Shown: positions 16,907 through 22,760 of the stretch, piece by piece
How positions within the stretch are numbered: position 1 is the stretch's first letter
Layout: each line of letters begins with the position of its first letter
Source: a bacterium
GTDB lineage: Bacteria > Chloroflexota > Dormibacteria > Aeolococcales > Aeolococcaceae
DNA: 41,485 bases
Reading direction: 5' to 3'
NCBI GenBank assembly: GCA_021847925.1
Contig: JAJZNI010000091.1
Location: 1-41,485 of the forward strand
Notes under the pieces: generated by a model
What the model saw: the letters and a program-made list of their open reading frames with translations, nothing else
Database searches by the model: none
Told to the model about the DNA's origin: nothing
Position numbers and translations under genes: made by a program

Positions 16907-18252
16907 ACTGCATCCTGCGCGGGGTCCGCGTCATCGACCCCCTCGCCCGCCGCGACGCCCCGGGCCAGGACGTCTGGCTGAGCGAGGGCCGGATCATCGC
17001 CATCTACAAGCACATGGGCGAGGGTTCGCTCCCCGTGATCGACCTCACCCCTGCGTCCGGCCACGCTCCGGTCATCCTCTGTCCCGGCTTCATCGACATC
17101 CACACCCACCTGCGCGAGCCCGGTGACGAGGGTGCGGAGACGCTGCACAGCGGTTCGCAGGCCGCCGCCGCGGGCGGCTTCACGCAGGTCGTGGCGATGG
17201 CCAACACCGTGCCCCCCGTCGACACCCCGGAACGGGTGAAGGAGGCCACCTTCCGGGCCGTGGCCGCGTCGGTGCAGGTGCTGACCGGATGCGCCCTGAC
17301 CCGGGGGCTGCAGGGCGCGGAGCTGGTCGACCTCGAGGAATGCGCCGCCGCCGGCGCGGCCGCCTTCTCGGACGACGGCCGCAACGCCCTCTCCCCGCGC
17401 CTGCTCAGCGAGGCGATCGTGCGAGCGGCGCCGCTGCGCCGGCCCATCCTGGTCCACCCCGAGGACGAGGAGCTCCTCGCCCAGGTGAACAACGTGCAGG
17501 GCCCCGTGAACCGCTGCTCGCTTCGCCCGGTGGAGGCCGAGGCCCGGGCGGTCGGCTACGCGCTGCGCGCCCTCACCCACGCGGGGCGCGGCCACGTGCA
17601 CCTGCAGCATCTCTCCGCGGCCGCGTCGGTCGAGATGGTGCGGCGGGCCAAGGAGGAGGGGGCGACCGTCACGGCCGAGGCCACCCCCCACCACCTCTCG
17701 ATGTGGCTGCCGATGGCGACCGAGCCGGACCCGCCCGCGCTGCGCAAGGTCAACCCGCCGCTGCGCACGGACCGCGACCGCGAGGCGCTCGTGCAGGCGC
17801 TGCGTGACGGCGTCATCGACTGCGTGGCGACCGACCACGCTCCCCACCGCGTCGAGGAGAAGACGCTCCCCTACGACGACGCGGCACCGGGCATGATCGG
17901 CCTCGAGCTGGCGCTCGCCGTCTGCATCACGCTGGGTGGGATGGGGGGGGATTGGGTGCCCACCCTGGTCGAGCGGCTCACCCTGGGCCCCTACCGGGTT
18001 CTCGGCCCGGGCGCGGGGATTCGGGAGCCGCGGCTGCGCATCGGGGAGGCGGCCACCTGCGTCCTCTTCGACCCCGAGGCGGAGTGGACGGTCGAGCCCT
18101 CGCACCTGCGTTCGACCTCCCAGAACACCCCGCTCCTCGGAGCCAAGCTCCGGGGCCGCGTGCTGATGACCCTGGTCGACGGGGCGCTGGTCCACCACGA
18201 CCGGCAGAGGCTGCCCTGGCCGGTGGCCGCGCCCTCGGAGCCGGCATCGTGA
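16903..18252 (+). CDS. pyrC: Dihydroorotase, class I
   Basis: A 449-aa zinc amidohydrolase that cyclises carbamoyl aspartate to dihydroorotate. Metal ligands are His67 and His69 in DIHTHLREPG, with an Asp in FSDDGRN (157-158) where class II enzymes have carboxylated Lys. The HPEDEEL, EATPHHL and ATDHAPH blocks complete the site. This is typical of the Bacillus-like class I enzyme. The ATG overlaps the pyrR stop, and the stop overlaps the GTG start of carAB (GTGA). Confidence 0.96.
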   Translation: MNCILRGVRVIDPLARRDAPGQDVWLSEGRIIAIYKHMGEGSLPVIDLTPASGHAPVILCPGFIDIHTHLREPGDEGAETLHSGSQAAAAGGFTQVVAMANTVPPVDTPERVKEATFRAVAASVQVLTGCALTRGLQGAELVDLEECAAAGAAAFSDDGRNALSPRLLSEAIVRAAPLRRPILVHPEDEELLAQVNNVQGPVNRCSLRPVEAEARAVGYALRALTHAGRGHVHLQHLSAAASVEMVRRAKEEGATVTAEATPHHLSMWLPMATEPDPPALRKVNPPLRTDRDREALVQALRDGVIDCVATDHAPHRVEEKTLPYDDAAPGMIGLELALAVCITLGGMGGDWVPTLVERLTLGPYRVLGPGAGIREPRLRIGEAATCVLFDPEAEWTVEPSHLRSTSQNTPLLGAKLRGRVLMTLVDGALVHHDRQRLPWPVAAPSEPAS

Positions 18253-21200: not shown

Positions 21201-22760
21201 CGTCTGGGCGTGGCCGCGATCATGGTCAACAGCAATCCGGAGACGGTCAGCACCGACTTCGATTGCAGCACCCGTCTCTACTTCGAGCCCCTGGACGAGG
21301 AGTCGGTCCTCACCGTCATCGCCGCCGAGAGGGCGGACGGGGTGGTGACCCAGTTCGGTGGCCAGACGGCCGTGAACCTGGCCGAGGCGCTGCACCGGCA
21401 CGGGGTGCGAATCCTCGGCACCGGGGCCGACGCCATCGACCTGGCGGAGGACCGGCGCCGCTTCGAGGCGCTGATGCGCCGGCTGGGGATCCCCCAGCCC
21501 CACGGTGCCGCCACGCTGGACGCCGCGGAGGCCGCGGAGATCGCCGAGAGGATCGGCTATCCCGTGCTGGTGCGCCCCTCCTTCGTCCTGGGTGGCAGGG
21601 CGATGGAGGTCGTGCACGGGCGGGACCAGCTCCGGCGCTACGTCGCCGCGGCGATGGCGGCTCTTCCCGACGGCGATGGCGGCTCGGGCGGCCGCGGCAC
21701 CGTGCTGGTCGACAAGTACCTCTTCGGCACCGAGATCGACGTCGACGCCGTCTCCGACGGTGAGACGGTGGTGATCCCCGGGTTGATGGAGCACGTGGAG
21801 CGCGCCGGCGTCCACAGCGGGGACTCCATGGCCGCCTTTCCCGCACCCGGCCTGGACCCCGAGGTCACGCGCGAGATCGTCGCCGACACCGTGGCCATCG
21901 CCCAGGCCCTGCCCGTCGCCGGGCTGTGCAACATCCAGTTCGTGGTGTGGCGGGGGAGGCCCCACGTCCTGGAGGTCAACCCGCGCGCGTCGCGGACGGT
22001 CCCCTTCATCAGCAAGGTGACCGGCGTGCCGATGGTCGAGCTGGCCACGCGGGTCATGCGCGGTGAGCGCCTCGCGGCGATGGGCTGGCAGACCGGCCTC
22101 GTGCCGCCTCCGCCGCTCGTCGCCGTGAAGGCCCCGGTGTTCTCGACGGTGAAGCTCGCCCTGGTGGAGCCCGCGCTGGGTCCGGAGATGAAGTCCACCG
22201 GCGAGGTGATGGGCGTCGACCTGTCCCTGGGAGCCGCGGTGGAGAAGGCGTTCGTCGCCGCCCTGGGCAGCGTCCCCCAGCGCGGGGCGGTGCTCTGCAG
22301 CATCGCCGACTCCGACAAGGCGGAGGCGCTCCCCATCATGGCCCAGCTCTCCACCCTGGGGTTCCAGGTCTACGCCACCGCCGGCACGGCCGCGGCCCTC
22401 GCCGGAGCGGGCATCAGCGCGACCGCGGTGGGGCGGATCGGGCAGAGCCGCCCCCATGTCCTGGACGTGATCGAGGAGGGCAGGGTGGCACTGGTCATCA
22501 ACACCATCTCCAACCTCGAGAGCGACGAGCTGAGCTTCGCGGCCGACGGTGAGGGGCGGCTCGCGGCGGCCGGGCGCACCGTCAAGGACGGCTATCGCAT
22601 CCGGCTCGCCGCTCAGCACCGGCGGATCCCCTGCTGCACGTCCATCGACACGGCCCGGGCGCTGGTCGACGCCATGACGCGGCAGCGCCAGGGGGGCGGC
22701 GTCACCGTCGCGCCGGTCCGCGCCTACCGGGAGGGCGCCGTGGCGGCGGTCACGGGATGA
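18249..22760 (+). CDS. carAB: Single-chain carbamoyl-phosphate synthetase (CarA-CarB fusion)
   Basis: One open frame of 1503 codons covers both subunits of glutamine-dependent carbamoyl-phosphate synthetase, which are separate carA and carB genes in most bacteria. Residues about 1-195 are the CarA N-domain. About 200-395 are the glutaminase with an intact triad: Cys288 (GICLGHQ), His374 and Glu376 (YHPEG). A Gly/Ala/Pro linker of about 22 residues (396-418) leads into CarB: first ATP-grasp half from VLVIGSGPVVIGQ (about 420), oligomerisation region (about 820-950), second half from residue 955 (VVVLGSGPIRIGQ), and the MGS-type allosteric domain from about 1345. No stop or start-with-RBS is seen at the junction. 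The layout resembles eukaryotic CPS, but the fusion lies in a bacterial pyr operon. The GTG start overlaps pyrC; the stop overlaps pyrK. Confidence 0.95.
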   Translation: MTGATARGDGLAPPAGTPGRLALESGAVFEGTLFGAPLSPATSGEVVFNTCMTGYQEVCTDPSYSGQIVVMTHPLIGNYGVRDDHAESGRMHCRALVVRELSAVVGHAAAHRSLDAELRRHGVPGLRGIDTRALTRHLRERGTLRGVIAVASAMTAEEQVALARRAPWVSDRDLVAEVSQAEPWAAWEEPLPPELELGVRLSGMAGRFAGLRIVTVDLGLKRNQLRALRSRGAEVITVRHDADLDAVMRHRPHGVVLSNGPGDPARLGGPVRLARDLLERRIPLLGICLGHQVIGLAAGATTSRLRFGHHGGNHPVRDEQTGAVYVTSQNHEFQVDGSSLPEGSGWYVSERNLNDGSVEGLRHRDLPVISVQYHPEGAPGPQDRAGVFDDFLSLCSGGAGAGLPLVPAAGATAPAGRPATVLVIGSGPVVIGQAAEFDYAGTQACKALREEGVRVVLVNSNPATIMTDDSSADAVYVEPLTVPVLERIIAAERPDGLLATLGGQTGLNLAVALDDAGILKRYGVHPLGTSLDAVRAAEDRERFKELLRRIGEPVPDSLTVSSVADARAFMERIGLPLVVRPAFTLGGTGGGLCDTEDQFVEVVSNGLAVSPIGQVLVERSLAGWRELEYEVMRDAAGTCITICNMENLDPMGVHTGDSIVVAPAQTLTDREHQQLRSAALRIISALGIAGGCNVQFALAPDSSEYFVIEVNPRVSRSSALASKATGYPIARLAAKIAVGRRLDEIPNAVTGKTCAAFEPALDYCVVKIPRWPFDKFPEGDRRLGTQMKSTGEVMAIERSFEAAFSKALRSLEQRPPSAAELTDPVLLDNPNDRRIFAVMAALRSGMPAEEVSRRSTISLWFVDRLAALVQAEERLRSGLDDAALIRAKRAALSDQRIAAAAGVGVADVERARRRLGLVPTFKCVDTCAAEFAAVTPYYYSTFELEDERPAPAGEAVVVLGSGPIRIGQGIEFDYCSVQAAEALRRLGVAAIMVNSNPETVSTDFDCSTRLYFEPLDEESVLTVIAAERADGVVTQFGGQTAVNLAEALHRHGVRILGTGADAIDLAEDRRRFEALMRRLGIPQPHGAATLDAAEAAEIAERIGYPVLVRPSFVLGGRAMEVVHGRDQLRRYVAAAMAALPDGDGGSGGRGTVLVDKYLFGTEIDVDAVSDGETVVIPGLMEHVERAGVHSGDSMAAFPAPGLDPEVTREIVADTVAIAQALPVAGLCNIQFVVWRGRPHVLEVNPRASRTVPFISKVTGVPMVELATRVMRGERLAAMGWQTGLVPPPPLVAVKAPVFSTVKLALVEPALGPEMKSTGEVMGVDLSLGAAVEKAFVAALGSVPQRGAVLCSIADSDKAEALPIMAQLSTLGFQVYATAGTAAALAGAGISATAVGRIGQSRPHVLDVIEEGRVALVINTISNLESDELSFAADGEGRLAAAGRTVKDGYRIRLAAQHRRIPCCTSIDTARALVDAMTRQRQGGGVTVAPVRAYREGAVAAVTG

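What the first reader, a model, noticed from the sequence alone, without database searches (positions are those of the whole stretch)
18249..22760. CarA and CarB fused into one 1503-residue carbamoyl-phosphate synthetase inside a bacterial pyr operon
Bacterial glutamine-dependent CPS normally has two genes. Here the frame runs without a stop from the GTG overlapping pyrC to the ATG of pyrK. The glutaminase triad (Cys288, His374, Glu376), both ATP-grasp halves and the MGS domain are all in order, joined by a Gly/Ala/Pro linker of about 22 residues. The architecture is that of eukaryotic CPS, but the genomic setting is bacterial, and the triad Cys is kept, unlike ammonia-dependent animal CPS I. 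It may be an independent fusion that fixes subunit stoichiometry and ammonia channelling.
Basis: partly seen in the sequence, partly recalled or inferred. Interest (0 to 1): 0.75.

Follow-up and report, generated by a model that had tools for sequence, protein, structure and literature searches.

The report
Class-wide bacterial CarA–CarB gene fusion
This uncultured Chloroflexota bacterium, like nearly all of its class, makes carbamoyl-phosphate synthetase as one long protein where most bacteria use two; the fusion is real, arose once inside the phylum from two adjacent genes, and is a modest but clean example of bacteria repeating a gene fusion best known from animals and fungi.

Summary
Window 18249-22760 (+) is one open frame of 1503 codons: complete CarA (glutaminase triad Cys288/His374/Glu376), a 23-residue Gly/Ala/Pro linker, then complete CarB, inside pyrB-pyrC-carAB-pyrK-pyrD. 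It is not an assembly artefact: in 110 genomes of the class the junction is open in every genome where it can be read (at least 93), in four families, with linkers of 21-84 residues. The window has no ATG/GTG/TTG codon in frame between residues 371 and 429, so CarB cannot start by itself. Elsewhere in the phylum carA and carB are separate, often in one frame with a single stop between them. None of 519 genomes with carA from four other large phyla has a fusion. In the trees the fused proteins form one clade (100/100) nested among split Chloroflexota genes; a common origin with the eukaryotic fusion is not favoured, though not formally excluded (AU p = 0.15). A partial AlphaFold model matches human CPS1 along its whole length (TM 0.88). 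A 2018 review already states that bacterial CPS II can be a single fused peptide, so this is a new, well-delimited member of a known kind. Two fused copies have left the pyr operon.

The parts
18249..22760 (+). carAB: fused glutamine-dependent carbamoyl-phosphate synthetase, 1503 aa, GTG start
   Evidence: translation; Pfam and NCBIfam domains in order
18309..18692 (+). CarA N-terminal domain (CPSase_sm_chain)
   Evidence: PF00988 E=1.2e-48
18894..19424 (+). class I glutaminase domain (GATase), residues 216-392
   Evidence: PF00117 E=6.1e-47
19110..19112 (+). glutaminase nucleophile Cys288
   Evidence: motif LLGICLGHQ; invariant in 24 fused proteins
19368..19376 (+). His374 and Glu376 of the triad (HPE)
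   Evidence: motif QYHPEGAPG; invariant in 24 fused proteins
19434..19502 (+). inter-subunit linker, residues 396-418 (91% GC); no in-frame start codon between residues 371 and 429
   Evidence: 25% mean identity between homologues against 61-77% in the flanking domains; low pLDDT at protein residues 400-413
19503..20945 (+). CarB N-half: pre-ATP-grasp, ATP-grasp (539-744) and oligomerisation domain D3 (827-899)
   Evidence: PF25596, PF02786, PF02787
21108..22076 (+). CarB C-half: second pre-ATP-grasp and ATP-grasp unit (about residues 954-1276)
   Evidence: PF25596 at 954-1064 and ATP-grasp matches to 1276
22326..22640 (+). MGS-like allosteric domain, residues 1360-1464
   Evidence: PF02142 E=1.5e-16
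15348..16277 (+). pyrB, aspartate carbamoyltransferase
   Evidence: TIGR00670 E=6e-101
16471..18252 (+). pyrC, dihydroorotase (homology begins near 16903); stop overlaps the carAB start
   Evidence: TIGR00857 E=7e-95, residues 168-577
22757..23650 (+). pyrK, dihydroorotate dehydrogenase electron-transfer subunit; start overlaps the carAB stop
   Evidence: NF000799 E=1.8e-38, below its equivalog cut-off
23374..24603 (+). pyrD, dihydroorotate dehydrogenase (homology begins near 23665)
   Evidence: NF005574 E=6e-101

Best explanation
The gene encodes a single-chain, glutamine-dependent carbamoyl-phosphate synthetase (CPS II). It arose in the common ancestor of this Chloroflexota class, when the stop codon between two adjacent genes of a pyrB-pyrC-carA-carB-pyrK operon was lost by a point change or small indel. 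The chain folds as ordinary CarA docked on ordinary CarB: glutamine is hydrolysed at Cys288, ammonia passes inside the protein to the N-half ATP-grasp site, carbamate passes to the C-half site, and carbamoyl phosphate leaves for PyrB and for arginine synthesis. The linker is a passive, freely drifting tether. Shown here: open frame, domains, triad, class-wide conservation, single clade, variable linker, no separate CarB start in the window, predicted fold. Inferred: catalysis, ammonia channelling, the arginine role, and fixed 1:1 subunit supply as a benefit.
For: Open frame and full domain set. One CarA and one CarB locus in the genome. In the class, 84 of 110 genomes match across the junction in one piece without a stop, and 9 more have both halves in one open frame. 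Three genomes with a break (G016, G027, G028) have the frameshift inside a domain, with the junction itself still open. Split Chloroflexota relatives have carA and carB adjacent in the same pyrB-pyrC-carA-carB-pyrK order, many in one frame with one stop between. The fused rows form one clade, support 100/100, one change in all 200 bootstrap trees. Linkers run from 21 to 84 residues with 25% identity, while both partners are well conserved. AlphaFold model of residues 15-1200: pLDDT 85.5, pTM 0.90; TM 0.88 to human CPS1 5dou over 1215 columns.
Against: No protein, transcript or enzyme data. All genomes of the class used here are metagenome bins or unnamed. The model leaves out the last 303 residues, and its rows for split relatives are unpaired. 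The nearest split relatives differ in junction type (same frame with a stop, or overlapping frames), so the exact mutation is not fixed. The genome is 87% complete, so a second CPS cannot be wholly excluded.
Confidence: 0.93

Rival explanations
1. Assembly or consensus error: a stop or frameshift between carA and carB was lost in this bin, and the organism really has two genes.
For: The window comes from a fragmented bin (188 contigs) with very high GC. Frameshifts do occur in a few sister bins (G016, G027, G028).
Against: The open junction is found in at least 93 genomes of four families, at 63-83% identity, and in named Chloroflexi bins (L031, L032, L033, L037, L039).
Confidence: 0.01
2. One reading frame, two proteins: CarB is also made by internal initiation in the linker, or the chain is cut after synthesis.
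For: Some sister linkers hold ATG or GTG codons, for example ATG two residues before the CarB core in L149. The linker is long and disordered enough to be cut in some members.
Against: The window and L147, L155 and L156 have no in-frame ATG/GTG/TTG codon in the linker. No start with a Shine-Dalgarno-like site is conserved across the clade. Proteolysis is untested.
Confidence: 0.05
3. The fusion shares ancestry with the eukaryotic CPS fusion, by transfer in either direction.
For: Same domain order, a similar linker length in human CPS1, and TM 0.88. An AU test does not reject a clade of human CPS1 plus the fused rows (p = 0.151).
Against: The best trees nest the fused clade inside split Chloroflexota and leave human CPS1 outside on a long branch. 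CarB identity is 56-60% to most split Chloroflexota read against 39% to human CPS1 over structure-aligned columns. Only one fast-evolving, partial eukaryotic row could be used.
Confidence: 0.04
4. The fused state is ancestral in Chloroflexota and the split operons are later fissions.
For: The fused clade is old (class level), and counts of change alone do not give direction.
Against: All sampled outgroup phyla are split, and the fused rows are nested in several split Chloroflexota branches, so a fused ancestor would need many fissions.
Confidence: 0.03

Closest known systems
Escherichia coli CarA/CarB carbamoyl-phosphate synthetase (PDB 1bxr, 1a9x)
   Same: All domains, the triad and the ATP-grasp motifs; both chains match the model (TM normalised by target 0.92 for CarA; 48% identity for CarB).
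   Different: Two genes and two chains in E. coli; one chain here.
Human CPS1 (CPS I, PDB 5dou/5dot)
   Same: Single chain, same domain order, similar linker length; TM 0.88.
   Different: CPS1 has Ser in place of the glutaminase Cys and uses ammonia with N-acetylglutamate; the window protein keeps Cys288 and groups with bacterial enzymes in the tree.
CPS II part of animal CAD and fungal URA2
   Same: Glutaminase and synthetase fused, in pyrimidine synthesis (PMC11818841, PMC6245113).
   Different: CAD and URA2 also carry aspartate carbamoyltransferase and a dihydroorotase domain; here PyrB and PyrC are separate genes next door.
Single-peptide bacterial CPS II, as stated in a review (PMC6022934)
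   Different: The passages read name no species; here the clade, origin and neighbours are mapped.
Same-frame carA-stop-carB pairs of other Chloroflexota (L161-L172)
   Same: Closest split sequences, mostly in the same operon order; the likely ancestral state.
   Different: A stop codon keeps the two proteins apart.

Membership tests
Glutamine-hydrolysing carbamoyl-phosphate synthetase (CPS II, EC 6.3.5.5) | CarA-type small subunit model over cut-off | tested here: met
   TIGR01368 418 bits against cut-off 307
Glutamine-hydrolysing carbamoyl-phosphate synthetase (CPS II, EC 6.3.5.5) | CarB-type large subunit model over cut-off | tested here: met
   TIGR01369 1389 bits against cut-off 1027
Glutamine-hydrolysing carbamoyl-phosphate synthetase (CPS II, EC 6.3.5.5) | intact Cys-His-Glu glutaminase triad | tested here: met
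   C288, H374, E376 present, invariant in 24 fused rows
Glutamine-hydrolysing carbamoyl-phosphate synthetase (CPS II, EC 6.3.5.5) | makes carbamoyl phosphate from glutamine, bicarbonate and 2 ATP | not testable with these tools
   needs purified protein
Single-chain (fused) CPS | both parts in one uninterrupted frame | tested here: met
Single-chain (fused) CPS | one polypeptide in the cell | not testable with these tools
   no internal start in the window linker, but no proteomics
CPS I (ammonia-dependent, urea cycle) | glutaminase Cys lost | tested here: not met
   Cys288 kept; the human row has Ser there
CAD/URA2 multifunctional protein | aspartate carbamoyltransferase and dihydroorotase in the same chain | tested here: not met
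   no such domains in the 1503 residues; PyrB and PyrC are separate genes

The most novel reading that the evidence does not exclude
Fusing carA and carB turned carbamoyl-phosphate supply into a one-gene cassette that can leave the pyr operon and be recruited by other carbamoyl pathways: into a ureide/oxamate carbamoyltransferase cluster in another class (G063, where it is the only CPS found), and beside an O-carbamoyltransferase as a second copy (G053).
Probability: 0.3. Interest if true: 0.5.

Novelty: new member of a known kind. Interest (0 to 1): 0.36.

Why it matters
It gives a class-wide bacterial counterpart of the textbook eukaryotic CPS fusion, with the likely unfused ancestral arrangement still present in sister lineages. 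That makes the effect of fusion testable (split it or fuse it, then measure). It also shows that pipelines looking for separate carA and carB genes may misread this class. It is not a new mechanism.

Tried and rejected
Assembly artefact: rejected by independent genomes. Separate CarB start: no codon in the window linker, none conserved elsewhere. Fusion in other phyla: five of the longest CarA frames were opened (L185-L189); CarB is in a separate frame in each, so none is a fusion. The 1475-residue frame of L061/L175 is an overlapping frame upstream of carB, not a fusion. The first structure job with 6 rows was poor (pLDDT 62, pTM 0.45) and was not used. Three tries to centre genome searches on loci of other phyla failed until handles were made. 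Paper searches for a named bacterial CarAB fusion found none apart from the general statement in PMC6022934 and a remark in PMC3155505 that CPS joined to aspartate carbamoyltransferase occurs in some bacteria.

Full report
What is there. Window 18249-22760 is one open frame of 1503 codons on the + strand. Pfam finds, in order, CPSase_sm_chain (21-148), GATase (216-392), pre-ATP-grasp and ATP-grasp units, the oligomerisation domain (827-899), a second pre-ATP-grasp unit (954-1064) and MGS (1360-1464). NCBIfam scores it over the cut-off both as CPS small subunit (residues 21-394) and as large subunit (419-1476). The 23 residues between, SGGAGAGLPLVPAAGATAPAGRP, are the linker. Cys288, His374 and Glu376 sit in the expected motifs.

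Setting. The gene lies in pyrB (15348-16277), pyrC, carAB, pyrK, pyrD. Four-base overlaps (GTGA with pyrC, ATGA with pyrK) suggest translational coupling at both ends; this is read from the sequence. Downstream are an acyltransferase and a glycosyltransferase; upstream a histidine kinase runs the other way. No further CarA or CarB locus was found in the genome, which is 87% complete.

Real or artefact. The class holds 110 genomes in four families. I counted: 84 genomes match across the junction in one piece with no stop, and 9 more have both halves in one open frame, with a longer linker that breaks the alignment. Most of the rest are cut by contig ends or have no match. G016, G027 and G028 carry a frameshift, but inside the glutaminase domain or in CarB; the junction remains in frame. 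No genome of the class was seen with a stop at the junction. Named public bins show the same: Chloroflexi isolates CF_92, CF_108, CF_13 and CF_121 and WH2.bin132.

One protein or two. Between residues 371 and 429 of the window there is no in-frame ATG, GTG or TTG, so CarB cannot be started separately with its first strand intact. In sister genes such codons occur at scattered places, with no conserved start and Shine-Dalgarno pair. One chain is therefore the best reading; proteolysis is untested.

How it arose. In 400 genomes of the phylum, the listed matches outside the class that span the junction carry one or more stops between carA and carB, most often exactly one TGA, TAA or TAG; the one exception is G063, discussed below. 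In the 19 split neighbours I read, 13 have carA and carB in the same frame and 6 in another frame; this sample favours the former, because it was chosen largely from junction-spanning matches. The order pyrB-pyrC-carA-carB-pyrK is shared by many of them. Loss of the stop in such a pair is the simplest origin. In a tree of 77 bacterial rows plus one human row, and in a smaller careful one, the fused rows are a single clade with full support, nested in split Chloroflexota. The human CPS1 row is far outside on a long branch; the AU test does not reject joining it to the fused clade (p = 0.151), so the formal exclusion is missing even though the best tree and the identities speak against it.

How rare. 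CarA frames were measured in four other phyla (labels from the record titles of the centre genomes): 139 Pseudomonadota, 141 Actinomycetota, 136 Bacteroidota and 103 Bacillota genomes with a match. The longest frames were 623, 873, 457 and 1049 residues; five of the long ones were opened and none is a CarAB fusion. This is a sample, not a census.

The linker. Among 24 fused proteins the stretch between the cores is 21-84 residues, with 25% mean identity, against 61-67% in CarA and 76-77% in the CarB N-half. Members of the window's own family include the longest linkers (66-84 residues in four). A tether that drifts so freely is unlikely to carry a specific function.

Fold and mechanism. AlphaFold2 on residues 15-1200 with 46 rows gives pLDDT 85.5 and pTM 0.90, with the linker (protein residues 400-413) among the few low stretches. 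Against the PDB the best match is human CPS1, 5dou, TM 0.88 over 1215 columns at rmsd 3.2, so the glutaminase sits on the synthetase as in a solved fused enzyme; the E. coli chains follow separately. From the known chemistry of the family, the enzyme should hydrolyse glutamine at Cys288, pass ammonia inside the protein to the first ATP-grasp site and carbamate to the second. That is inference from homology.

Copies outside the operon. G063 belongs to another class in which the other members are split or lack a match; its fused gene falls inside the window's family clade (92/85) and lies beside an AllG-type oxamate carbamoyltransferase subunit, a CoA-ligase-like protein and molybdopterin-dehydrogenase subunits. 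G053 has a second fused copy directly after O-carbamoyltransferase genes. The likely readings are one transfer and one duplication or transfer, each into a pathway that handles carbamoyl phosphate. Bin contamination is not excluded for either, though the G063 contig is 177 kb.

Verdict. The finding is right as an observation and mostly right as an interpretation. The kind of thing is known: fused CPS in eukaryotes, and a review states that bacterial CPS II can be a single peptide (PMC6022934). Another review describes CPS, ATCase and DHOase as separate proteins in bacteria, which does not bear on CarA against CarB (PMC11818841). What is added here is a clade, a likely route and a map of its spread in the material searched. 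Interest is moderate to low.

Noticed in passing
L158 (G063:C17:81600-90300): Fused carAB outside the pyr operon, next to AllG (oxamate carbamoyltransferase subunit), a Ligase_CoA protein and molybdopterin-dehydrogenase subunits; the genome's only CarA match, in a class whose other members are split. Looks like a horizontal transfer.
   Followed up: partly
L156 (G053:C1:32700-41700): Second fused carAB copy in the same genome as L155, directly downstream of O-carbamoyltransferase genes (PF02543/PF16861).
   Followed up: partly
L152 and L150, linker DNA: Linkers of some members contain near-perfect inverted repeats (for example GCCTCTATCGCGCGCG...CGCGCGCAATAGAGGC in L152), as if small palindromic elements had inserted in frame.
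   Followed up: no
L160, linker: A short in-frame insertion (about 8 residues, LWAQPAKQ) compared with its close relatives L153 and L154, in a linker otherwise conserved in that family.
   Followed up: no
G013 and G018 (genus g14 of the window's family): No CarA match in either genome, one of them 91% complete; possible loss of CPS or a gap in the bins.
   Followed up: no
window 6108-7643 (+): One frame with Ada zinc-binding domain, HTH_18 and AlkA/HhH-GPD glycosylase domains, an Ada-AlkA type fusion.
   Followed up: no
window 37995-38564 (+): Adenine phosphoribosyltransferase just upstream of S-adenosylhomocysteine hydrolase.
   Followed up: no
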